Assembly: GCA_937897315.1 (NCBI GenBank) | Contig: CALCNS010000216.1 | Span: 1-13,900, forward strand | Origin: an uncultured Bacillota bacterium | Lineage (GTDB): Bacteria > Bacillota > JAAYKD01 | Direction of reading: 5' to 3' | DNA length: 13,900 nt | Shown here: positions 2,396 to 12,102 of the stretch, in pieces | How the letters are laid out: each line of letters opens with the position of its first letter | Position numbering within the stretch: the stretch's first letter is position 1 | Notes under the pieces: model-generated | Databases searched by the model: none | What the model was told of the DNA's origin: nothing | The model's input: only the letters and a program-made list of their open reading frames with translations | Program-made: the position numbers and the translations under genes

Positions 2396-2911
2396 ATGCA
2401 GGTGTCACAAGTGGAACAAGTTGTAAAAAAAATACCGGATTCACAGGAGTTGGAGAAAATTCTAAATCTAATCGATCTCTATGGTAATCGTCCCGAAAAT
2501 TTGATTCAGATTTTGCATGGCACTCAACAAATCGCAGGGCACATTCCCTTGACGTTGCAGTGTATTATTGCAGAAAAGTTAAGTATTCCTGTTAGTGAAG
2601 TATCGGGAGTGGTATCCTTTTACTCATTCTTTTCCGCCAAACCGCGAGGGAAACACATCATTAGAGTCTGTCTGGGAACTGCCTGCTATGTTCGAGGTGG
2701 AAAAAAGCTAGTAGAAACACTTCAACACAAGCTTCAAGTAAACCTTGGAGAAACGACTGCAGATGGCCAGTTTACCTTGGAAATTGCCCGATGTATTGGA
2801 GCGTGCGGATTAGCACCCGCTATGATGATTGATGATGAGGTGTTCCGCCAGGTCAATCCTAACAAAGTCGATTCCATTCTTCAGCAATATGAAGGAGGGA
2901 GGAGTTCATGA
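2396..2911 (+). CDS. hydC: Hydrogenase small subunit, NuoE/HydC-like [2Fe-2S] protein
   Basis: This is the thioredoxin-fold [2Fe-2S] subunit of a NAD(P)-linked [FeFe]-hydrogenase, equivalent to HydC, HndA or NuoE, which passes electrons between the flavin subunit and other clusters. The 171-aa protein has an N-terminal helical region and then a C-terminal thioredoxin-like domain with four cluster cysteines, C92, C97, C133 and C137 (CLGTAC and CIGAC). The motif GVVSFYSFF is typical of NuoE. I chose ATG 2396 because GAGGGGG lies 6 bases upstream; an in-frame GTG at 2339 would add 19 poorly conserved residues with no good ribosome binding site. The stop overlaps the next start as ATGA, so it is the first gene of a coupled hydrogenase operon. 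Confidence 0.92.
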   Translation: MQVSQVEQVVKKIPDSQELEKILNLIDLYGNRPENLIQILHGTQQIAGHIPLTLQCIIAEKLSIPVSEVSGVVSFYSFFSAKPRGKHIIRVCLGTACYVRGGKKLVETLQHKLQVNLGETTADGQFTLEIARCIGACGLAPAMMIDDEVFRQVNPNKVDSILQQYEGGRSS

Positions 2912-5900
2912 TTAGCAAGATTGAAAATGTCGAACAACTATCTTCTTTGAAAGAAGAGTATCTAAGACATCTTGCCACTTTTCGATATCAGGTGTTGGTC
3001 TGTGGGGGAGCTGGGTGTGTCTCTTCTCATTGTCAGGAAATCGTCGCTGCTCTTCAGGAATCTTTAGTAGAGGAAAGAATTTCAGACGATGTTCTGGTGA
3101 CGGTAACCGGTTGCATGGGTTTATGCGCGGTAGGACCGGTGATTCTGGTGTTGCCTGAGCGGACATTCTATACCAATTTGACCCCTGAAAAGACGAAAGC
3201 CATTGTCAAGTCGCATTTGAAAGAGCAAAAGATTCTAGAAGAGTATACTTTTTTCGACGCTTCTTTGGAGAGGCATGTGACATGTATGGATGACATTGAG
3301 TTCTACAAAGCTCAGCTGAAAATAGTATTAGATAACTGTGGTCAAATTGATTTCAATGACATCAAAGCATACATAGCAAGAGATGGTTATTTGGCATTGG
3401 CCTCTGCTTTAAAGCAACAAACTCCGCAATCGATTATCAACGAAGTGAAAACGTCGGGGTTGCGTGGTAGAGGAGGAGCTGGTTTCCCGACCGGTATCAA
3501 ATGGCAAGCCGGGCATGATCAATTAGGCGAGCAGAAATATATGGTCTGTAATGCAGATGAAGGAGATCCGGGTGCTTTTATGGACCGGAGCATCATCGAG
3601 GGTGACCCGCACGCCGTAATTGAAGGAATGGCTTTAGGAGGATACGCCATAGGAGCCAATAAGGGATATGTGTACATTCGTGCCGAGTACCCCATTGCCA
3701 TCGAGCGTCTGACCGAGGCGATGAAACAGGCAAAACAGATGGGCTTACTGGGAGACCATATTTTCGGGTCCAATTTCTCATTTGCTCTGGAAATCCGCAT
3801 TGGTGCAGGAGCATTTGTTTGCGGAGAAGAGACCGCTCTCATGGCGAGTATTGAAGGAAAAAGAGGAGAACCGAGGCAGAAACCCCCCTTCCCCTTCCAG
3901 TCCGGGTTATTTGGGAAACCTACCATCATTAATAATGTAGAAACCATTGCTAATATTCCCAAAATCCTACGCCGAGGTGGAGCGTGGTATGCCGGATTCG
4001 GCTTACCGAAAGCGACCGGAACTAAAGTGTTTGCTTTGGCTGGGCAAGTGGTGAACACCGGAATTATAGAGGTTCCCATTGGTACTTCCATTGGAGATAT
4101 TGTCTACAAAATCGGTGGGGGAATTCGAGATGGCAAAGCCTTTAAAGCAGTGCAAATTGGAGGTCCTTCCGGCGGTTGTGTGACGAAAGAAGCGCTGAAT
4201 ACACCGGCCGATTATGAAGCATTGAGCCAACTAGGGGCAATTATGGGCTCCGGTGGCCTAATCGTCATGAATGAGGATACCTGTATGGTAGACACCGCTC
4301 GCTTTTTCATGGACTTTATTCGCGATGAATCCTGTGGAAAATGCGCTGCGTGTCGCATTGGGACCAAGCGCATGTTGGAAATCTTAGAAAACATTACAGA
4401 AGGCAGAGGTAAAATAGGGGATATAGAACTGTTAGAGGAAATCGGCGAGACCTTGAAACAGACGGCACTATGTGGCTTAGGACAAACGGCAGCCAATCCC
4501 ATCTTATCTACGATTCGGTATTTTAGAGAGGAGTATGAAGAACACATTCTTCAGAAATATTGCCATGCCGGGGTCTGTGCCTCATTATTCATTTCACCTT
4601 GTGAAAACACGTGCCCAGCGAATGTCAATGTTCCTGGTTATGTTGCATTGGTCGCTTCAGGGAGATTTCTCGATGCGTATCGTTTGATTATGCAAGAAAA
4701 CCCGTTACCTGCGATATGTGGTCGGATTTGCACACGTCCCTGTGAGCAAAAGTGCCGTCGGGGAACGGTAGATGAAGCAGTAGCCATACGCGATCTGAAA
4801 CGTTTTGTTGCAGACTATGCGTTTAAACACGAAACTTCCAACATGCTTCAGTGGACTGCCCCACGCAATGGGAGGCGAATTGCCATTATTGGTGCGGGTG
4901 CATCGGGATTAACATGTGGATACTATTTGGTGCGTTTGGGTTATGATGTCGATATATTTGAAGCAGAACAGATTGCCGGAGGGGTATTGGCCTATGGAAT
5001 CCCCGAGTATCGATTGCCCAAAGATGTTTTGAGCCATGAGATTGATCTCATTGTGAAAGCCGGTGTTAAGATTAAATATGGGGTGGAGATCGGTCGCGAT
5101 ATCGATTTTAAAACGTTACAAGATCAATACGATTCTGTTTATGTGGCAACAGGAACTCAATATCCTCAAAAGGTTCAGATTCCGGGAGAAGAATTAGATG
5201 GAGTGATTCACGGTATCCGTTTTCTCAAGAATGTTCATTTCCAAAAAATCAAACGTTTAACCGGAACCGTTGCAGTCATTGGTGGAGGAAACACTGCCAT
5301 TGATTCTGCAAGAACAGCCGTACGTTTAGGAGCAAGTCGAGTCGTGATTGTTTATCGACGTACAATTGATGCCATGCCAGCATATCATGAAGAAGTGGTT
5401 GAAGCGTTGGAAGAGGGTATTGAAATCATGGAGCTGGCCGCTCCGGTGAAAATTTGGGGAGATCATAGAGCGCGTGTGCGTGAGCTGGAAATGGTGCGCA
5501 TGGAATTGGGTGCATTTGATGCCAGTGGACGCAGAAAGTCGGTGGAAGTAAAAGGGTCTCGTTTCCGATTGGAAGTCACAACTGTGATTCCAGCAGTGAG
5601 TCAATATGCGGATTTACCGTTCGTAGGAAAGCAAGAAGTTCAACGGACTGCTTGGGGGACTTTTGTCATTGATGCTGAAACCCAAATGACCAGTATGCCG
5701 GGTGTTTTTGCTGGTGGTGATGTGGCCAGAGGTCCGGATGATGTGATTCGAGCGATAGCCGATGGAAAACGAGCAGCCATGGCCATGGACAAATATCTTG
5801 GTGGTAAAGGAATTCTCAACAAAGGTGAGCCCATCGAAATTCCAGAAATCGTGGATTCGGATGAAATTGTGTTCCATACGCAATTTGAGAAAGAAGTATT

Positions 5901-6012
5901 GGTTCCGGAGAGGCGTGTGAAAAGTTTTGAAGAAGTCGTCAAAGGATATCATAAGATCAATGCAATCGCAGAAGCCATGCGCTGTTTGCATTGCGATAGG
6001 AGGGCATTATGA
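2908..6012 (+). CDS. NuoF/HydB-like hydrogenase subunit fused to a GltD/NfnB-like FAD-NAD(P)H module
   Basis: This 1034-aa polypeptide joins two electron-transfer units. Residues 1-120 form a thioredoxin-like [2Fe-2S] domain (C32, C37, C69, C73). From about 180 to 525 is the NuoF/HydB core: GRGGAGFP and CNADEGDPGAF (FMN/NADH site), then CGKCAACRIG and a later CGLGQ cysteine (N3-type [4Fe-4S]). From about 565 to the end is a complete GltD/NfnB/PreT-like module: a cysteine-rich Fe-S domain (CENTCPANVNVPGY ... CGRICTRPCEQKC), an FAD motif IIGAGASGL (near 656), a second dinucleotide motif VIGGGNTAID followed by VVIVYRR (near 786), GGDVARGPDDVIRAIADG (near 931) and a terminal CLHCD. The two 4Fe-4S ferredoxin motifs usual at the HydB C-terminus are absent and the GltD-like module takes their place. 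The known role of the first half is NAD(H) oxidoreduction; GltD relatives mostly use NADPH, so a second, NADP-linked site is inferred. ATGA overlaps join it to both neighbours. The frame is intact throughout, arguing against an assembly artefact. Confidence 0.93.
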   Translation: MISKIENVEQLSSLKEEYLRHLATFRYQVLVCGGAGCVSSHCQEIVAALQESLVEERISDDVLVTVTGCMGLCAVGPVILVLPERTFYTNLTPEKTKAIVKSHLKEQKILEEYTFFDASLERHVTCMDDIEFYKAQLKIVLDNCGQIDFNDIKAYIARDGYLALASALKQQTPQSIINEVKTSGLRGRGGAGFPTGIKWQAGHDQLGEQKYMVCNADEGDPGAFMDRSIIEGDPHAVIEGMALGGYAIGANKGYVYIRAEYPIAIERLTEAMKQAKQMGLLGDHIFGSNFSFALEIRIGAGAFVCGEETALMASIEGKRGEPRQKPPFPFQSGLFGKPTIINNVETIANIPKILRRGGAWYAGFGLPKATGTKVFALAGQVVNTGIIEVPIGTSIGDIVYKIGGGIRDGKAFKAVQIGGPSGGCVTKEALNTPADYEALSQLGAIMGSGGLIVMNEDTCMVDTARFFMDFIRDESCGKCAACRIGTKRMLEILENITEGRGKIGDIELLEEIGETLKQTALCGLGQTAANPILSTIRYFREEYEEHILQKYCHAGVCASLFISPCENTCPANVNVPGYVALVASGRFLDAYRLIMQENPLPAICGRICTRPCEQKCRRGTVDEAVAIRDLKRFVADYAFKHETSNMLQWTAPRNGRRIAIIGAGASGLTCGYYLVRLGYDVDIFEAEQIAGGVLAYGIPEYRLPKDVLSHEIDLIVKAGVKIKYGVEIGRDIDFKTLQDQYDSVYVATGTQYPQKVQIPGEELDGVIHGIRFLKNVHFQKIKRLTGTVAVIGGGNTAIDSARTAVRLGASRVVIVYRRTIDAMPAYHEEVVEALEEGIEIMELAAPVKIWGDHRARVRELEMVRMELGAFDASGRRKSVEVKGSRFRLEVTTVIPAVSQYADLPFVGKQEVQRTAWGTFVIDAETQMTSMPGVFAGGDVARGPDDVIRAIADGKRAAMAMDKYLGGKGILNKGEPIEIPEIVDSDEIVFHTQFEKEVLVPERRVKSFEEVVKGYHKINAIAEAMRCLHCDRRAL

Positions 6013-7781
6013 TTCAATGTACTATTAAGCGTCAAAGCATATCGGTGTTGGAAGGCACAACGATTTTGGAGGCGGCGAAACAGAATCATATTCGCATCCC
6101 AAATCTTTGCTACATGGAGGGTCTACATAGTACAGGATCATGCCGTATTTGTAGCGTAGAGGTAGTCGGTGCAAAAACCCTAATGGCAGCTTGTGTGACA
6201 GAAGTGCGAGAAGGTATGCAGGTTTTTACCCATTCAAAGAAAGTCCAGGATGCCCGCAAGATGCTGTATCAACTGCTCCTGTCGGATCATCATCAAGATT
6301 GCTTGCGCTGTAACAGAAATCTCGAATGTGAATTTCAGGAATTAGGAAGAGAGTTGGGTGTGACGCAATCGTTGTTCCAAACAACTTCTTCTCGCTCCGC
6401 CAAGGACGAAGGTCCATCCATTGTACGAGATACATCGAAATGTATTTTGTGCCAACGATGTGTGACGGTTTGTCAAGATATTCAAGGAGTTGGGGCGATA
6501 CGGGTTCAGAACAGGGGGTTCCAGTCTGTGGTGGCGCCTGCTATGGAGTTACCTTTGGCGCAAGTCAACTGCGCCAATTGCGGTCAATGTACCATTGTTT
6601 GCCCGGTAGGAGCTTTGGAAGGCACCGATGCCACCGAAATAGTGTGGCAAGCCCTTCATGACCCCAATGTTCGAGTCGTCATGCAGTGTGCACCCGCAAT
6701 ACGAGTGGCCATTGGTGAGTTGTTCGATTATCCGGTAGGAACTCGTGTCACCGGGAAATTGGCTGCCGCCATGAAAGCATTGGGAGCCGATGATGTATTT
6801 GATACAAATTGGGCTGCAGACCTAACCATTTTGGAAGAGGGAACCGAATTACTTCACCGTTTGCTGAAAAGTCTTGAAGGTCAGCCGGCAGCCTTTCCCA
6901 TGATAACAAGTTGTTCGCCAGGTTGGATTAAGTTCGTTGAGCACCAATATCCCCATCTGCTGGATCACTTATCAAGCTGTAAATCTCCTCATATGATGCT
7001 CGGAGCCTTATCCAAAAGTTACTATGCTGAGAAACTGGGGATCAATCCCAAAAAAATCTTCGTCGTATCTGTGATGCCGTGTACAGCCAAAAAGTTCGAA
7101 ATTACGCGTGAAGAAATGATCCATGATGGGTTGAAGGATGTAGATGCGGTATTGACCACTCGAGAACTGGGAAGAATGATTCGACAAGCCGGCATCGATT
7201 TTCGTCAACTAAAGGACATTCCTTTTGATCAGCCCATGGGGTTCTCTACCGGGGCTGCAGATATCTTTGGTGTCACGGGTGGAGTGATGGAAGCAGCATT
7301 GAGAACAGTGTATACCGTATTGTCCGGACGACCCTTACCTTTTGCCAAGCTTCATGTGGAATCCATTAGAGGAATGGATGAAGTAAAGGAAGCCACCCTT
7401 GTTTTGCAAGACCTACTGCCACAATATCATGCCTTGGAAGGAGCTCACGTGAAGGTTGTAGTGACGAGCGGACTTCACGGTGCAAGAGTACTCATGGATC
7501 AAATCCAAGCGGGCAATTCTCCTTATTTATTTATGGAAGTGATGGGTTGTCCCGGTGGGTGTATCACCGGAGGGGGTCAACCCCGCAGCCATGACCCAGA
7601 AGTTCGCTCGAAACGTATGAAGGCATTATATGAAGAAGATGAGAGCAAAGTACTTCGTGAATCACATGCAAATCCATCCATAGATGCACTATATCGGGAG
7701 TATCTTGGCGAGCCCTGTGGTGAACGATCACACCACTTGTTGCATACTCATTATATAAAACGAGCTCCGATCATTCCTTGA
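6009..7781 (+). CDS. hydA: [FeFe]-hydrogenase catalytic subunit HydA
   Basis: This subunit interconverts protons and H2 at the H-cluster. Domains in order: an N-terminal [2Fe-2S] ferredoxin domain (C34, C45, C48, C62), the His-Cys [4Fe-4S] motif (H94, C98, C101, C107), a two-cluster ferredoxin domain (CILCQRCVTVC and CANCGQCTIVCP, residues 145-198), the H-domain and a C-terminal small-subunit-like region. H-cluster motifs are L1 TSCSPGW (300-306), L2 MPCTAKKFE (356-364) and L3 EVMGCPGGC followed by GGGQP (from 510). L1 has Ser where the textbook motif has the second Cys. At 590 aa it matches the HydA/HndD class of multimeric, often electron-bifurcating enzymes. It is the last gene of the operon. 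No leader peptide or Tat signal is seen, so the complex is likely cytoplasmic. Maturation genes hydE, hydF and hydG are not in the window. Confidence 0.96.
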   Translation: MIQCTIKRQSISVLEGTTILEAAKQNHIRIPNLCYMEGLHSTGSCRICSVEVVGAKTLMAACVTEVREGMQVFTHSKKVQDARKMLYQLLLSDHHQDCLRCNRNLECEFQELGRELGVTQSLFQTTSSRSAKDEGPSIVRDTSKCILCQRCVTVCQDIQGVGAIRVQNRGFQSVVAPAMELPLAQVNCANCGQCTIVCPVGALEGTDATEIVWQALHDPNVRVVMQCAPAIRVAIGELFDYPVGTRVTGKLAAAMKALGADDVFDTNWAADLTILEEGTELLHRLLKSLEGQPAAFPMITSCSPGWIKFVEHQYPHLLDHLSSCKSPHMMLGALSKSYYAEKLGINPKKIFVVSVMPCTAKKFEITREEMIHDGLKDVDAVLTTRELGRMIRQAGIDFRQLKDIPFDQPMGFSTGAADIFGVTGGVMEAALRTVYTVLSGRPLPFAKLHVESIRGMDEVKEATLVLQDLLPQYHALEGAHVKVVVTSGLHGARVLMDQIQAGNSPYLFMEVMGCPGGCITGGGQPRSHDPEVRSKRMKALYEEDESKVLRESHANPSIDALYREYLGEPCGERSHHLLHTHYIKRAPIIP

Positions 7782-7849: not shown

Positions 7850-8215
7850 ATGAAAATCAGCGCTTCCGGGCAAGATTATTTAGAAGCTTTGCTAGAGCTT
7901 TCAGAAGAAGGGGGCTCTGTTCGCTCGGTCGATGTGGCCAAACGCATAGGGGTTTCTCGAGCTAGCGTTAACAAAGCGATGAACGTTCTCAAAGAGAGCG
8001 GTTTAGTGGAACAGGAAAGATATGCTGAGATTACACTTACCGATGAAGGAATCCGCACTGCGAAAGCAGTCTACAAACGTCATGCCATATTGAAGCGGTT
8101 TTTGACCGATGTTTTAGGGGTCAGCGAAGCAAATGCAGAAAACGATGCCTGCCGTATGGAACATGTCATCAGTATAGAGACGTTAGAGAAACTTCAAAGA
8201 TTTTTAAATCAATAA
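7850..8215 (+). CDS. DtxR/MntR-family metal-dependent transcriptional regulator
   Basis: A 121-aa cytoplasmic repressor with an N-terminal winged helix (about residues 5-65; recognition region around VSRASVNKAMNVLKESG) and a metal-binding dimerisation helix region. It lacks the C-terminal SH3-like domain of DtxR/IdeR, so it has MntR-like length. Metal ligands can be placed by comparison: D9 and E12 (MntR Asp8, Glu11), H78, and the DACRMEH segment giving C101, E104 and H105. Thus position 9 is Asp as in MntR, while 101 is Cys as in DtxR/IdeR rather than MntR Glu99. Whether the metal is Fe(II) or Mn(II) cannot be decided. An excellent ribosome binding site (AAGGAGGAG) precedes the ATG. Its place directly after the iron-rich hydrogenase genes suggests iron-linked control of that operon, which is inference. 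Confidence 0.88.
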   Translation: MKISASGQDYLEALLELSEEGGSVRSVDVAKRIGVSRASVNKAMNVLKESGLVEQERYAEITLTDEGIRTAKAVYKRHAILKRFLTDVLGVSEANAENDACRMEHVISIETLEKLQRFLNQ

Positions 8216-8257
8216 GCAAACAACCGGTGCAGAAAATGCACCGGTTGCTTGCTTATT
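8211..8257. terminator. Bidirectional terminator between convergent genes
   Basis: A 20-bp stem with one mismatch covers the whole gap between convergent genes: AATAAGCAA (8211-8219) pairs with TTGCTTATT (8249-8257), and CAACCGGTGCA (8221-8231) with TGCACCGGTTG (8237-8247), around a GAAAA loop. Both stop codons lie inside the outer stem. The flanks are T-rich on both strands but have no long uninterrupted U-run. Confidence 0.8.
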
Positions 8258-9995
8258 GACATAAATTGTGAAGCCACTGACTTTGATAGGTTTGATTTGG
8301 CCATGTTTCTTGATTCATAGGCCTTCCTCGCAAATCTAACATAATGCCTGAAATTCCACCTTGAACAGTAACCTTAGTTTGTTCTGCAGGCCATTTGGCT
8401 CCGTTGTGAAGCGAGATGGTTATCGAAGCCGTTTCGTTTGATTGTAAAGGGATTGATAGGAGTTCCCCCCAATTACCGGTTTGCTTTAAGAGACGACCCG
8501 TGCTTGTTTTTCCTTCAATCGTTATAGCAGGTTGACCTAGTGAACCGAAACCAAGGGGCACCAACGAGGTGCCAAGGGGTATTAGGCAGTCGCGTTCGAG
8601 AATTTCTAAGGCACCGGCTTCGTCTGCATGAGAAAAGGCACCTAAGTGTGGCAGCATAAAGATGGAGTCTACCATGAGTTCGGTAATACCAACGGGTTGA
8701 AAGGCATCAAGGAGCATGGCGGCTGCTTGTCCACGATGTGGCGCGTTCGATAAAACGCCACCCGACCCGATAATCATGTCGAAATCGTCGATGTGGATTT
8801 CCTTTTCGGTTTCAGCAAGTGAGCTAGAGAACAAACCTTTGGGCTTCTGTATTTTCGCAATGGCTTTATGATCCAAAAAAGACAACCTCAATGCTTCTCG
8901 TCCAGCTGCTTGTTCCATGTATAGTTCATGTAAAGTCGCAGGTATCGAAGTAGGATAAATCAATTTATTACCGATACGCTCTTGCAAATCATCATTGGTC
9001 AGCTGGTGATTGGGAATCCAACAGGCGATGGAATCGAGTCCGGCACTGGAAGCAACGTTTCCAATGCTGTAACTCATGCCATAGTTGGCACTTACGGTGC
9101 GTACATATTGCCCTTTCACCACGGAGAACACGTCGGTGGTTGCGCCACCGATATCGACACATAGAATACTCTTTTTTGTTTTTGTCGCATAAAGGCAAAG
9201 GATGTCACCCACCGCAGTGGGAGTTGGCAATAAGTCCATAGCGGTCATGTCTTTTAAACGGCTATAACCCGGTGCATGGGACATGACATGCTCAATAAAA
9301 AGCTCATGAATCGCTTCCCTCGTTGGAGTAAGATTTTCTTCCTGAAAGGAAGGCCGTAAATTATCTACAATTTTGAGAGAGAATTGATCTCCCAGAAGGT
9401 CTTCGACTAAATCTACTGCTTTTGAGGTTCCGGCATAAATAATGGGAAGAGTATATTGATAACCAAATTTTGGTTTTGGATGAGCAGAGCGAATGAAATC
9501 ACACATTTCAATCATAAAGGAACCGGGCTCTGCGCCGTCGACACCTCCGGAAAGCAAAATCATGTCTGGACGTAAGGTCCGAAGGCGCTCCATGCGTTGG
9601 AAAAGTGTTCGACCATCATCGGCAGCAAATACATCAAGCAAAACAGCTCCTCCGCCCAAAGCTGCTCTTTGCGCACTCTCTGCAGAAATACGACCAACAT
9701 GACCGCAAACAACCATTTGTAAACCACCTCCGGCAGAGCTGGTAGAAAGGTAGGGAATATCGTTCAGCACTTTTCCTTGATTTGTTTCCTGAAGTAGTGA
9801 TTGATTGCAGCGTTGTTCCACCATCTCAATGGATCGAATGACACCTACCATGACATCGGCATCGGGTGCTTCCACGGTAGTCGCAGCTTCCCCTCGTGCG
9901 ATAAGTTGCCATTGTTGATGTTGCTTTTCAAAATACAACGCCTTGGTCGTGGTGCTTCCTACATCTGTGATTACAATCCGTTCCCATGAAATCAT
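8253..9995 (-). CDS. MutL/GlmL-type ASKHA ATPase (glutamate mutase L family, long form)
   Basis: This 580-aa protein belongs to the MutL/GlmL family (unrelated to mismatch-repair MutL), actin/Hsp70-like ATPases first seen encoded between the two glutamate mutase subunits and thought to protect or reactivate B12 enzymes. Visible motifs are phosphate-1 DVGSTTTK (residues 11-18), phosphate-2 DIGGATTDV (about 280-288) and an adenosine-site GSGGVLSNA (about 409-417). The usual GlmL is nearer 460 residues; here about 100 extra C-terminal residues look beta-rich (TSTGRLLKQTG, ASITISLHNGAKW, VTVQGGISGIMLDLRG). The start at 9995 has GAGGT six bases upstream and overlaps the previous stop as ATGA. It is the last gene of a three-gene operon. 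No mutase subunit gene is present, so the partner protein is unknown. Confidence 0.85.
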   Translation of the reverse strand: MISWERIVITDVGSTTTKALYFEKQHQQWQLIARGEAATTVEAPDADVMVGVIRSIEMVEQRCNQSLLQETNQGKVLNDIPYLSTSSAGGGLQMVVCGHVGRISAESAQRAALGGGAVLLDVFAADDGRTLFQRMERLRTLRPDMILLSGGVDGAEPGSFMIEMCDFIRSAHPKPKFGYQYTLPIIYAGTSKAVDLVEDLLGDQFSLKIVDNLRPSFQEENLTPTREAIHELFIEHVMSHAPGYSRLKDMTAMDLLPTPTAVGDILCLYATKTKKSILCVDIGGATTDVFSVVKGQYVRTVSANYGMSYSIGNVASSAGLDSIACWIPNHQLTNDDLQERIGNKLIYPTSIPATLHELYMEQAAGREALRLSFLDHKAIAKIQKPKGLFSSSLAETEKEIHIDDFDMIIGSGGVLSNAPHRGQAAAMLLDAFQPVGITELMVDSIFMLPHLGAFSHADEAGALEILERDCLIPLGTSLVPLGFGSLGQPAITIEGKTSTGRLLKQTGNWGELLSIPLQSNETASITISLHNGAKWPAEQTKVTVQGGISGIMLDLRGRPMNQETWPNQTYQSQWLHNLCQ

Positions 9996-10798
9996 GATTG
10001 CACCTCATTTCCAGTCTTCTGAGTTTGATCCCAAAAGGCCTGATGATCCCCATAGAAGGCAAGATTTCCTAAAAATGCATCTTCGCTTTTTTTAAATTTT
10101 AAGAAGCTGAACATTCCCTTTTTATTTTGTCCACACTGCAATACGTTTTCTTCCTGTAAAGTTTGCCAGAGAGATGCTGCTAATGATTGAAAGGCTTGTA
10201 ATGCGGTTTCGGTATATTCGCGCTGAGACATCCACTGTTTGGCAATTTCCATCATTTCACTCTCGATGGAGTGAGTGCTTTCGTGCCAAAACGGCCATTG
10301 CTTTAGTAATCGCGTCCAGTGCATCAGGGGCATTCTCAGTGGTTCGTTATTTGCATAAGTGTGACCTAACGCATATAAAATCTCAATTCCTTTATTATAA
10401 GCCAGAACATGCCCTTTTTCGTCCAATGTTTTCATGAATTGCAGGAAAGAAGATTCGCGCAGAGCAGAAATGAGTTTAACTTCCTGTCGTAACCCGGGAG
10501 CCTGTAAGTGCATCATTGAAGAGTTCTCTCCAAAGGGTACAAAAACACACAACCATGGTTGATTGGGTTTTTGGGCATCTTTGAAAGTTAAATGACTGTC
10601 ACAATAGGACTCTTCTAAACCGAATGCACGGCAATGTTGCAGCCATAAAGGCCACAAATGCATGTGGATTCCAGCAAAAGCCACTAATCCGCTAAACAGA
10701 GCCGTATCTTGACAAGAAATATCCTTGCGCACTTTCTCTAGAGCAGGTGCCCAGCATTTTGCTAAGGAGATGCCCTGTTCGCTTAAGTATTTGGTCAA
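9992..10798 (-). CDS. Uncharacterised 268-aa protein of the MutL operon
   Basis: I do not recognise this family. The protein has no signal peptide and no clear membrane segment, is rich in Trp, His and Met, and is probably helical. The C-terminal half holds an SFLKFKKSEDAF segment. I place the start at TTG 10798, not at the in-frame ATG 10825: the TTG overlaps the upstream gene's TGA as TTGA and has a strong GGAGGT eight bases upstream, whereas ATG 10825 would lie 28 bases inside the upstream gene without a good site. The 3' end overlaps the MutL-type gene by ATGA. Unbroken coupling on both sides suggests the three proteins are made in fixed proportion, perhaps as a complex. The longer alternative would be 277 aa. 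Confidence 0.75.
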   Translation of the reverse strand: MTKYLSEQGISLAKCWAPALEKVRKDISCQDTALFSGLVAFAGIHMHLWPLWLQHCRAFGLEESYCDSHLTFKDAQKPNQPWLCVFVPFGENSSMMHLQAPGLRQEVKLISALRESSFLQFMKTLDEKGHVLAYNKGIEILYALGHTYANNEPLRMPLMHWTRLLKQWPFWHESTHSIESEMMEIAKQWMSQREYTETALQAFQSLAASLWQTLQEENVLQCGQNKKGMFSFLKFKKSEDAFLGNLAFYGDHQAFWDQTQKTGNEVQS

Positions 10799-12102
10799 GA
10801 AACAGCACCTCCAATCTTCTGGCAATTTTGGACTGGTATCTGTATAGAACTTCCGTCCTCCAATTGAATGTGTACTAAGGCAGCCATCGTTCCGGCTTCG
10901 GTAGCTTGAAGTTCAGAGCGAAGCTGAACCACTCGGCCAATTGCTCCAAAGTGTGGTTCGCGAATGAGTTGAACAAAATCGTTGACATGTAGATTTCTAT
11001 CGGTGTTGACCGGTTCCAGCTGTTGTGGTTCATCTTCTTCCAAAGCAATAAGAATTTCGGGGCGTACGACACCAGCGCGTAACTGAGTACTCCCATCTAT
11101 GGAAGCGCTCATGCCATGGTGTGAGGCTAATTCTTGATAAAGAGCGTTGGACATCGCACAGCCAAATCCTTGCATGAGAATAATGGTAAATGGAAGGTCC
11201 ATTCGGGAACCCATTACGGTTAAAATATCTTCACGGCTATACTCTTTGAGCACATGGGGCTTAATTGTTCCTAAAATCAAGCCCTTTATGCCTGCTTTCT
11301 CTACCGCCCGCAATGCTTCCAGCGTGATACCACCTCTGGCTATGAGAATCTTTCCTTTCATATCGGCGGGGAGATCGAAGGTGTCAAGATCCTCAGACTT
11401 GGAGGAAACTGCCTCTAGAATACCAATTTGCTCACCACCATACCCTATGACACCCGGATAACGATAACCATACCCTTGAATTACTAAGGTGGAGGAGTCG
11501 GGTTGGTCTACCACAGTACCGTTCAGATGGGCATACAGCTCTGTCACTTGGTAAAGCGGAGCTAAAATGATATAACCGCCATTGACCGAAATCTCGCGAA
11601 TTCGACCCACGGCAGGAGCTAGTATCGGTGGTTTAGAGGTAACTAAAACACGACCTTTATCCACTACAGTACCTTGCTTTATCGTGGTTCCAGCGGCAAA
11701 AGCCAGCTTTGATAAACCAAAATCCTCTGCTCTCAGCCATATCGGTTCTTTCGGTCCAGCGGGAAGGGGTTCACGAATGAATACATTGCCTAAGAATTTA
11801 GAGATTAAAGCCACATATCCGGATGTAGGGCTTAGTACGGTCGTTTCAAAAAAGCATTCATCGTTTCTTGCCAGTATATCTCCCTTATCTACCCAATCGT
11901 TTATATCTTGCACGATTTTCCGGTGAATGTATTTCGGAGCGATGCCCAGTTGATCTGCAACATTGCATCGAACCATTTGACCGGGTATATAATCCAGCTT
12001 CCCGACAATCGTGTCTTTTTCTACTTTCTGCCCGGGTTTAACCAGTAATTGACCCTGAGCAATTAAGCGACGGGTAACTGTTAAACGTTGTTTCTTTCCC
12101 AT
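10795..12102 (-). CDS. Uncharacterised 435-aa protein with carrier-like segments and a KOW-like C-terminus
   Basis: The function is unknown; I recall similar proteins encoded beside long MutL-type ATPases in other bacteria, without an assigned role. Visible parts: residues 18-40 resemble one half of a biotinyl/lipoyl-type (barrel-sandwich) carrier fold (VKPGQKVEKDTIVGKLD); repeats of that flavour recur near 66-80 (VDKGDILAR) and 137-170 (GTVVDKGRVLV, APAVGRIREI). The middle, about 245-355, is alpha/beta-like (GKILIARGGITLEALRAVEKAG, then TIILMQGFGCAMS). Residues 371-430 look like a KOW/SH3-type barrel (VNDFVQLIREPHFGAIGRVV, IQLEDGSSIQIPVQN). No lipoylation or biotinylation lysine in a recognisable MKM or DKA context is present. 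AGGGGG lies six bases before ATG 12102. It is the promoter-proximal gene of the operon and may serve as an assembly or scaffold factor, which is a guess. Confidence 0.75.
   Translation of the reverse strand: MGKKQRLTVTRRLIAQGQLLVKPGQKVEKDTIVGKLDYIPGQMVRCNVADQLGIAPKYIHRKIVQDINDWVDKGDILARNDECFFETTVLSPTSGYVALISKFLGNVFIREPLPAGPKEPIWLRAEDFGLSKLAFAAGTTIKQGTVVDKGRVLVTSKPPILAPAVGRIREISVNGGYIILAPLYQVTELYAHLNGTVVDQPDSSTLVIQGYGYRYPGVIGYGGEQIGILEAVSSKSEDLDTFDLPADMKGKILIARGGITLEALRAVEKAGIKGLILGTIKPHVLKEYSREDILTVMGSRMDLPFTIILMQGFGCAMSNALYQELASHHGMSASIDGSTQLRAGVVRPEILIALEEDEPQQLEPVNTDRNLHVNDFVQLIREPHFGAIGRVVQLRSELQATEAGTMAALVHIQLEDGSSIQIPVQNCQKIGGAVS

What the first reader, a model, noticed from the sequence alone, without database searches (positions are those of the whole stretch)
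2908..6012. Hydrogenase flavin subunit fused to a complete second flavin/NAD(P)H reductase module
The sequence shows one uninterrupted frame carrying a NuoF/HydB core (FMN/NADH motifs plus N3-type cluster) and a complete GltD/NfnB-like module with its own Fe-S domain, FAD motif and second dinucleotide-binding motif, in place of the usual C-terminal ferredoxin domain of HydB. Separate GltD-like genes beside [FeFe]-hydrogenases are known (group A2-type loci); a covalent fusion within a HydABC-like trimer would place two pyridine-nucleotide sites and two flavins on one chain. Inference: the complex could couple H2 with both NAD(H) and NADP(H), combining hydrogenase and Nfn-like transhydrogenase chemistry, with either flavin a possible bifurcation site.
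Basis: partly seen in the sequence, partly recalled or inferred. Interest (0 to 1): 0.78.

Follow-up and report, generated by a model that had tools for sequence, protein, structure and literature searches.

The report
Hydrogenase fused to NADPH-reductase module
The window carries a real three-gene hydrogen enzyme whose NADH-binding subunit has lost its ferredoxin-docking tail and gained a complete NADPH-handling module instead; the layout is widespread and was already noted in two genome papers, but I found no measurement of what it does.

Summary
ORF 2908-6012 is one 1,034-aa frame: a HydB/NuoF core joined to a complete GltD-type module. It lies between HydC (2339-2911) and a group A6 [FeFe] HydA with an intact H-cluster site (6009-7781), with 4-bp gene overlaps. 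It is neither an artefact nor rare: 74 of 80 fetched loci encode the same uninterrupted fusion, 70 of those 74 with HydA nearby. Nor is it new in print: Vallitalea (2018) and Hydrogenedentota "sub-type I BfuB" (2024) describe the same domain swap. What I add is residue-level. The flavin-core ligands (C1, B1, B2/Zn hinge, B5) are kept; only the B3/B4 ferredoxin domain is replaced, directly after the hinge. The GltD part has a full cofactor set, with the Stn-type Lys cluster ligand (47/47) instead of the NfnB Glu, which argues against its FAD as bifurcation site. Fifteen of 20 genomes examined that hold the fusion also keep a ferredoxin-type HydB. Best model: NADP(H) takes ferredoxin's place on the low-potential branch (2 H2 + NAD+ + NADP+ = NADH + NADPH + 2 H+). 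NADP(H) use is likely; bifurcation is inferred and untested.

The parts
2396..2911 (+). HydC/BfuC (NuoE-like): thioredoxin-like [2Fe-2S] cluster C1; the ORF opens at GTG 2339 but the likelier start is ATG 2396
   Evidence: PF01257 over 44-184 of the GTG-started frame; Cys 111, 116, 152, 156 present; upstream sequence
2908..6012 (+). Fused subunit HydB-GltD (1,034 aa)
   Evidence: AF2 model mean pLDDT 88.4, pTM 0.84
2983..3213 (+). N-terminal thioredoxin-like domain, [2Fe-2S] B5 (C32, C37, C69, C73)
   Evidence: PF01257; C69/C73 47/47, C32/C37 46/47
3445..3960 (+). FMN/NADH-binding Nuo51 domain (GRGGAGF; CNADEGDPGAF)
   Evidence: PF01512; the nine motif residues checked are 47/47
4030..4176 (+). 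SLBB domain
   Evidence: PF10531
4291..4545 (+). N3-type [4Fe-4S] B1 domain (C476, C479, C482, C522)
   Evidence: PF10589; 47/47
4543..4578 (+). B2 cluster / Zn hinge site (H546, C552, C557, with C459 upstream)
   Evidence: 47/47; matches in spacing the A. mobile HydB ligands Cys438, His525, Cys531, Cys536 (PMC8880783 passages)
4564..4833 (+). GltD Fe-S domain (DPD domain II): two [4Fe-4S] sites; Cys 565, 569, 608, 612, 616 and Lys631
   Evidence: PF14691; conservation; K631 aligns to StnC K170
4876..5766 (+). FAD-binding and NADP(H)-binding Rossmann folds (GAGASG; GGGNTAID; YRR), R702 = StnC R239 / NfnB R201
5983..5994 (+). C-terminal CxxC (C1026, C1029) expected to complete the distal [4Fe-4S] of the GltD domain
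   Evidence: 46 of 47, the other row ending at a contig edge; aligns to the EAxRCLxC of NfnB/StnC
6009..7781 (+). HydA, [FeFe] hydrogenase group A6, with the cysteine set for clusters A1-A4 and the H-cluster
   Evidence: NF040763 840.4 bits over cut-off 765; Cys census and L1-L3 motifs; best solved relative by E-value 7q4v_A, A. woodii HydA1

Best explanation
The operon encodes a soluble three-subunit [FeFe] hydrogenase (HydC, HydB-GltD, HydA) that exchanges electrons among H2, NAD(H) and NADP(H). Shown by sequence: the HydBC flavin core and its hinge are intact, only the ferredoxin-docking domain is exchanged for a cofactor-complete NADP(H)/FAD module, and HydA has an H-cluster site. Inferred: H2 electrons reach the FMN through HydA and cluster B1. 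The FMN/C1/B2 centre sends one pair to NAD+ and the low-potential electrons across the hinge into the two [4Fe-4S] clusters of the GltD module, then to its FAD and NADP+. NADP(H) so stands where ferredoxin stands in ordinary HydABC: 2 H2 + NAD+ + NADP+ = NADH + NADPH + 2 H+, reversible. In H2-poor fermenters it would run toward H2 from NADH plus NADPH; at higher H2 it would make NADPH.
For: All B1 and B2/Zn-hinge ligands are kept in 47/47, B5 in 46 of 47; the C1 cysteines are present in the window's HydC. The swap point lies directly after the hinge motif HxxxxxCxAGVC: of 20 unfused HydB candidates fetched from the same genomes (20 of the 36 unfused NuoF-type places), 16 match the hinge pattern and all 16 continue with two CxxCxxCxxxC clusters. 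In StnABC the putative ferredoxin exit is exactly this C-terminal domain, and deleting the C1-equivalent cluster abolishes the coupled reactions (PMC10482914 Results). The GltD cofactor residues are complete and nearly invariant. The Lys of the Stn-type, non-bifurcating FAD site is present in 47/47; the six Glu rows are NfnB-size or other GltD proteins. 15 of 20 genomes with the fusion also hold a ferredoxin-type HydB, so the fused enzyme is not simply the cell's ferredoxin-type enzyme. Mid-range energetics: equilibrium pH2 about 119 Pa for NADH+NADPH against 3 Pa for NADH alone (assumed potentials).
Against: Even in T. maritima HydABC the B3/B4 clusters lie over 30 A from their nearest neighbours unless the domain moves (PMC9499530 passages), so the exit route is itself a hypothesis. 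NADPH (about -375 mV) is a mid-potential carrier: the gain from bifurcation is modest, and plain equilibration also works thermodynamically at many H2 pressures. S. wolfei HydB, which lacks B3/B4, does not bifurcate; it lacks the N-terminal cluster too, so the parallel is imperfect. By the published Bfu definition B3/B4 are required. Whether the hinge site is a [2Fe-2S] or Zn is disputed. The likeness to StnC is not complete: StnC C114, near the same cluster, is Val in the window.
Confidence: 0.43

Rival explanations
1. Non-bifurcating, doubly wired hydrogenase: NADH enters by FMN/B1 and NADPH by FAD/GltD clusters, both simply equilibrating with H2 (and so also acting as an NADPH:NAD+ transhydrogenase).
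For: The ferredoxin exit B3/B4 is gone, and the S. wolfei enzyme without B3/B4 is non-bifurcating. The FAD site is of the Stn type, a plain two-to-one electron switch there. A short relative (L125: N3 + GltD with no FMN domain, with an H-domain about 0.7 kb further on in the same contig) suggests that GltD can feed a hydrogenase without FMN at all; that short form still keeps three of the four hinge ligands, so hinge conservation alone does not prove bifurcation.
Against: Free equilibration would waste the NADPH/NADH difference. The fused family keeps the whole FMN-side apparatus (C1 in the window's HydC, B1, B2/hinge, and B5 in 46 of 47).
Confidence: 0.32
2. Four-substrate enzyme: ferredoxin still reacts, for example at the distal GltD cluster as in NfnB, so the complex merges ferredoxin/NAD(H)/H2 bifurcation with Nfn-like transhydrogenation, possibly with the FAD as a second bifurcating centre (the first reader's view; the 2024 Hydrogenedentota authors also raise the FAD centre).
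For: NfnB uses its two [4Fe-4S] clusters for ferredoxin (PMC7483475 section 11 part 1), and both cluster sites are complete here. R702, the N5-contacting Arg of NfnB (R201), is invariant. The 2024 authors propose an alternative FAD centre.
Against: The proximal cluster position has the Stn Lys instead of the NfnB Glu in 47/47. In Stn the same Arg is conserved yet does not contact N5, and the authors conclude that FAD does not bifurcate. The cluster that would meet ferredoxin is the one that must connect to HydB here (inference).
Confidence: 0.18
3. Stn-like direction: NADPH is the mid-potential donor that feeds the FMN core through the GltD module, which sends electrons to NAD+ (high) and to protons through HydA (low).
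For: In StnABC NADPH electrons travel GltD, Fe-S chain, B1, FMN.
Against: There the GltD domain is on the A-type subunit that feeds B1; here it is on the opposite exit, and HydA occupies the B1 feeding position. This is a topological inference from sequence only.
Confidence: 0.05

Closest known systems
Hydrogenedentota sub-type I BfuABC (PMC11406978, 2024)
   Same: BfuB in which the B3/B4 domain is replaced by a DPD_II domain plus FAD/NAD(P) domain; group A3 [FeFe] hydrogenase; same uncertainty about a second flavin centre (section 7 read)
   Different: Phylum and gene order: theirs is labelled BfuABDC with an extra gene D, the window is C-B-A with no D. The words NADPH and NADP do not occur in the main text
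Vallitalea guaymasensis L81 second trimeric [FeFe] hydrogenase (PMC6163223, 2018)
   Different: Annotation only in the passages seen; authors suggest a link to glutamate oxidation or assimilation
StnABC / Nfn-Bfu transhydrogenase (8oh5, 9bov, 9n5u)
   Same: HydBC-type flavin core plus GltD module with Lys at the cluster-ligand position; GltD half closest in sequence and fold
   Different: GltD is part of the NuoG-like StnC, the ferredoxin domain of StnB is kept, and there is no H-cluster
HydABC bifurcating [FeFe] hydrogenases (T. maritima, A. woodii, T. kivui)
   Same: HydB core to residue ~561 and HydA
   Different: Their HydB ends in the B3/B4 ferredoxin domain; no GltD module
NfnAB (4ylf, 5jca)
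   Same: GltD/NfnB fold with FAD and NADP(H) sites
   Different: Glu instead of Lys at the cluster-ligand position, CxxC at the N- not the C-terminus, separate NfnA flavin subunit
Hyt-FdhA of C. autoethanogenum
   Same: Couples H2, NADP(H) and a HydB-like subunit (passages of PMC6288185 and PMC6085437)
   Different: More subunits plus FdhA, needs ferredoxin, NADP(H) is thought to bind the HydB-like HytB; no GltD fusion mentioned in the passages seen

Membership tests
[FeFe] hydrogenase group A (NCBIfam group A6) | Profile score above curated cut-off; H-cluster motifs L1-L3 | tested here: met
   NF040763 840.4 > 765 and TIGR02512 496.1 > 405.95; motifs at 300, 356 and 510. Ten other HydAs scored (5 beside fused, 5 beside ferredoxin-type HydB): 10 of 10 pass NF040763, so A6 does not separate the two types
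Bfu family (BfuABC) | BfuBC core with FMN and clusters C1, B1, B2, B5 | tested here: met
   Ligand residues by sequence only; the fourth B2 Cys is Thr in the window, the variation described as Cys/Thr
Bfu family (BfuABC) | B3/B4 ferredoxin domain at the BfuB C-terminus | tested here: not met
   Replaced by the GltD module
Bfu family (BfuABC) | Coupled reaction with ferredoxin and NAD(H) | not testable with these tools
   Needs purified enzyme
Hydrogenedentota sub-type I BfuB architecture | DPD_II + FAD/NAD(P) domain in place of B3/B4 | tested here: met
Hydrogenedentota sub-type I BfuB architecture | Gene cluster BfuABDC with extra gene D | tested here: not met
   Window order is C-B-A, followed by a DtxR/MntR-like gene
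Stn / Nfn-Bfu | GltD domain within the A-type (NuoG-like) subunit, no H-cluster, ferredoxin domain on StnB | tested here: not met
Stn / Nfn-Bfu | Lys ligand to the FAD-proximal [4Fe-4S] | tested here: met
   K631 47/47; aligned with Lys in 8oh5_C, 9bov_A, 9n5u_A. By sequence only
NfnAB | Glu ligand to the FAD-proximal [4Fe-4S]; separate NfnA subunit | tested here: not met
HydDB group A2 (GltS-linked) hydrogenases | HydDB classification of HydA | not tested

The most novel reading that the evidence does not exclude
A ferredoxin-free electron-bifurcating hydrogenase: the HydBC FMN core keeps its low-potential branch but delivers it to NADP+ through a hinge-mounted GltD/FAD module, so one enzyme splits H2 electrons between NAD+ and NADP+. 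If so, ferredoxin is not essential to this class of bifurcation and its exit domain is a swappable cassette.
Probability: 0.37. Interest if true: 0.75.

Novelty: new member of a known kind. Interest (0 to 1): 0.42.

Why it matters
How HydABC-type enzymes bifurcate with a single FMN is an open argument, and the role of the mobile ferredoxin domain is central to it. A widespread natural variant in which only that domain is replaced by an NADP(H) module is a ready-made domain swap: measuring whether NAD+ and NADP+ reduction are mutually dependent would test whether the C1/B2 branch carries low-potential electrons without ferredoxin.

Tried and rejected
Stn complex as identity: first hypothesis (the GltD/HydB combination), rejected because GltD is on HydB, the ferredoxin domain is gone and HydA has a full H-cluster site. 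Frameshift or gene-fusion artefact: rejected, since 74 of 80 loci have an unbroken frame of 980 aa or more; of the other six, five end at a contig edge and one (L024) is split. Decayed module: rejected, cofactor residues nearly invariant (exceptions: C569Y in L050, Gly for C32 and C37 in L069, E685 varied in five rows, and the contig-edge row L070). HydA type as discriminator: group A6 fits both fused and ferredoxin-type partners, 10 of 10, so it says nothing about coenzyme. 'Only hydrogenase of the cell' argument: only G011 (L042, a 1.8-Mb assembly) has a single [FeFe] and no [NiFe] family match; G005 has one [FeFe] but also [NiFe] matches; G003 has five [FeFe], so this was not used. RnfC_N matches are mixed (14 of 20 genomes; the family also rings in control genomes such as B. 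subtilis) and do not discriminate. Clean monophyly: the HydB-core tree needs two label changes (outlier L076; one origin in 20% of 200 bootstrap trees), so single origin is neither shown nor excluded; the quick HydA tree likewise needs two. Electron path: model coordinates are not in the box, so no cluster distances were computed. Window's own genome: not held.

In-print check: searches and 69 of the held open-access library led me to no biochemical study of the fused enzyme; subscription papers are largely not covered, and I read only passages or sections of the papers I opened. The HydDB paper (PMC5037454) was seen only as a search listing.
Full report
What is there. ORF 2908-6012 (+) is a single 1,034-aa frame. 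Pfam places, in order, a thioredoxin-like [2Fe-2S] domain (26-102), the Nuo51 FMN/NADH domain (180-351), SLBB (375-423), the N3-type NADH_4Fe-4S domain (462-546), then DPD domain II Fer4_20 (553-642) and an FAD/NAD(P) Pyr_redox_2 region (657-953). By sequence the first half is HydB: A. woodii 7q4v_B over 24-561, E 2e-219. The second half is the GltD part of Stn/Nfn proteins: 9n5u_A over 562-992 in the whole-protein search, then with the half alone 9n5u_A, 9bov_A, 8oh5_C, and after these the NfnB chains 4ylf_B and 5jca_L. HydC lies upstream and HydA downstream, overlapping by 4 bp at each junction, which suggests one translationally coupled operon. HydA passes NCBIfam NF040763, 'NADH-dependent [FeFe] hydrogenase, group A6' (840 bits, cut-off 765), and has the cysteines for A1-A4 and all three H-cluster motifs.

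How common. Of these 80 loci, 74 hold an unbroken fused frame of at least 980 aa; 71 of the 74 have a HydC hit within about 4 kb on the same strand and 70 a HydA hit starting within 4.5 kb downstream. Of the 64 HydAs of at least 560 aa, 62 match all three H-cluster patterns; L005 and L039 miss the first. A stricter third pattern used was missed by more. Holders include Bacillota, Bacteroidota, Lentisphaerota, Kiritimatiellota, Armatimonadota and Planctomycetota by the origins shown. The four loci without HydA are two cut at the contig end (L014, L070), the short contig L076, and L079, which has room for it.

What is kept and what is replaced. An alignment of the window protein with 46 of the 80 loci (chosen by me, most near-copies and incomplete ones left out) was checked at each cofactor position. 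B1 ligands (C476, C479, C482, C522) are 47/47. The hinge site (C459, H546, C552, C557) is 47/47, with the fourth cysteine position Thr in 35, Cys in 11 and Ser in 1; this corresponds in spacing to the A. mobile 'B2' ligands Cys438/His525/Cys531/Cys536 with a semi-conserved Cys/Thr at 476 (PMC8880783, passages). The T. maritima authors model the site as Zn, a hinge for the mobile ferredoxin domain (PMC9499530, passages). B5 cysteines are 46-47/47. In the GltD half, C565, C608, C612 and C616 are 47/47, C569 46/47, and C1026/C1029 46/47 (the other row ends at a contig edge). K631, R702, the FAD glycines, the GGGxxAxD motif and R802, R806, R817, R818 are 47/47; the acidic FAD residue E685 is Glu in 42, Asp in 4, Asn in 1.

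Controls for 'replaced'. In 20 genomes that carry the fusion (chosen by me among the loci) the NuoF-type Fe-S family rings at 56 places, 20 of them the fused genes. I fetched 20 of the 36 unfused places. Sixteen, from 15 genomes, match the hinge pattern, and all 16 continue right after it with two CxxCxxCxxxC clusters; the other four did not match the pattern and were not examined further. The swap therefore sits exactly at the hinge, and 15 of 20 holders keep both kinds of HydB. G003, G005 and G011 have only the fused NuoF-type gene; the unfused ones of G019 and G020 were not fetched. In G013, G014 and G016 the two kinds lie on opposite strands of one contig about 6-11 kb apart.

Which flavin. 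In StnC the FAD-proximal [4Fe-4S] has a Lys ligand (K170) where NfnB has Glu, and the authors conclude from structure and mutants that the StnC FAD does not bifurcate, while the HydBC-like StnAB core does (PMC10482914, Results section read). The window aligns with Lys at that position (K631) and with Val at StnC C114, a second residue near that cluster which is not strictly conserved in Stn either. In a set of 30 GltD-type proteins from the 20 genomes (the 30 kept as loci out of 77 matches) plus the window, Lys occurs in all 21 fused proteins, in three Stn-like or HydA-inserted proteins and in L125, and Glu in six NfnB-size or other proteins (the labels go by size and neighbourhood, not by a profile). 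This ties the module to the Stn kind and lowers, without excluding, FAD bifurcation. The invariant Arg (R702) does not discriminate, since Stn has it too.

Ancestry. On the HydB-core tree (95 rows: 75 fused, 20 unfused) the fused label needs two changes, because L076 falls with weak support among the others; starred branches force only one. The quick HydA tree (82 rows: 65 fused, 17 unfused) also needs two. The window groups with Bacteroidota and Christensenella sequences; its own organism is not known.

Mechanism. [quoted passage not shown] PMC9304861, parts 3 and 5 of 9 plus passages). The fused enzyme keeps everything up to that exit and puts an NADP(H) module there. The simplest reading is that NADP(H) is the low-potential partner, giving a ferredoxin-free H2/NAD(H)/NADP(H) enzyme. 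With assumed in-vivo potentials (NADH -280, NADPH -375, ferredoxin -500 mV, near those in Table 1 of PMC9304861), the H2 pressure at equilibrium is about 3 Pa for NADH alone, 119 Pa for NADH+NADPH, 4.8 kPa for NADPH alone and 15 kPa for NADH+ferredoxin; these are arithmetic, not measurements. Against coupling: S. wolfei HydB without B3/B4 and without the N-terminal cluster does not bifurcate, NADPH is not a strong low-potential acceptor, and the natural short form L125 (no FMN domain) still keeps three of the four hinge ligands, so hinge conservation is not proof of bifurcation. On checking, I had overstated the loss in L125; mending this moved the main model from 0.45 to 0.43, the novel case from 0.38 to 0.37 and the non-bifurcating rival from 0.30 to 0.32. 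I hold NADP(H) as a substrate at about 0.85.

Prior work. Vallitalea guaymasensis (PMC6163223, two passages) and the Hydrogenedentota study (PMC11406978, section 7 and passages) both describe this replacement; the latter also proposes a possible FAD centre next to the FMN-FeS centre and says that the co-existence had never been reported. The Bfu family paper places Nfn-type modules in BfuA, and no BfuB fusion appears in the parts and passages I read. No assay of the fused enzyme turned up in the searches. The finding is therefore a real, seemingly uncharacterised but already described type, and the window is one more member of it.

Noticed in passing
L121 (G008:C227:3611-6253) and L122 (G009:C34:882-3524): Single frames of 1,146 and 1,156 aa hold both a GltD domain and the [FeFe] hydrogenase H-domain: a StnC-like HydA with GltD inserted, a second topology for combining hydrogenase and NADP(H) module.
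   Followed up: partly
L125:1138-2970 (G012:C279): A 611-aa protein made of the N3 domain plus GltD without the FMN domain, with one of the four hinge ligands (the C557 counterpart) lost, and an [FeFe] hydrogenase H-domain about 0.7 kb further on; possibly an NADPH-only hydrogenase.
   Followed up: partly
L072:8770-10404, L073:4665-6341, L074:13159-14793, L075:14389-16086: In these PVC-group loci a second, unfused NuoF-type gene (545-566 aa) lies between the fused HydB-GltD and HydA, so two FMN subunits may share one complex; L078, also checked, gave no such hit.
   Followed up: partly
L079:10883-13915 and L076:2149-5175: Fused HydB-GltD without a HydA nearby although L079 has 10 kb downstream; the electron partner is unknown.
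   Followed up: no
G013:C107, G014:C1, G016:C3 (genomes of L053, L058, L062): Ferredoxin-type and GltD-type NuoF genes lie on opposite strands of one contig about 6-11 kb apart, suggesting division of labour by coenzyme.
   Followed up: partly
window 7850-8215 (+): A short (121 aa) DtxR/MntR-like regulator starts 68 bases after hydA; it may belong to the hydrogenase operon.
   Followed up: no
window 8253-12102 (-): MutL-type (PF13941) gene next to two ORFs of 277 and 435 aa without NCBIfam matches at the threshold used; the 435-aa one has only weak barrel-sandwich Pfam hits. An uncharacterised cluster.
   Followed up: no
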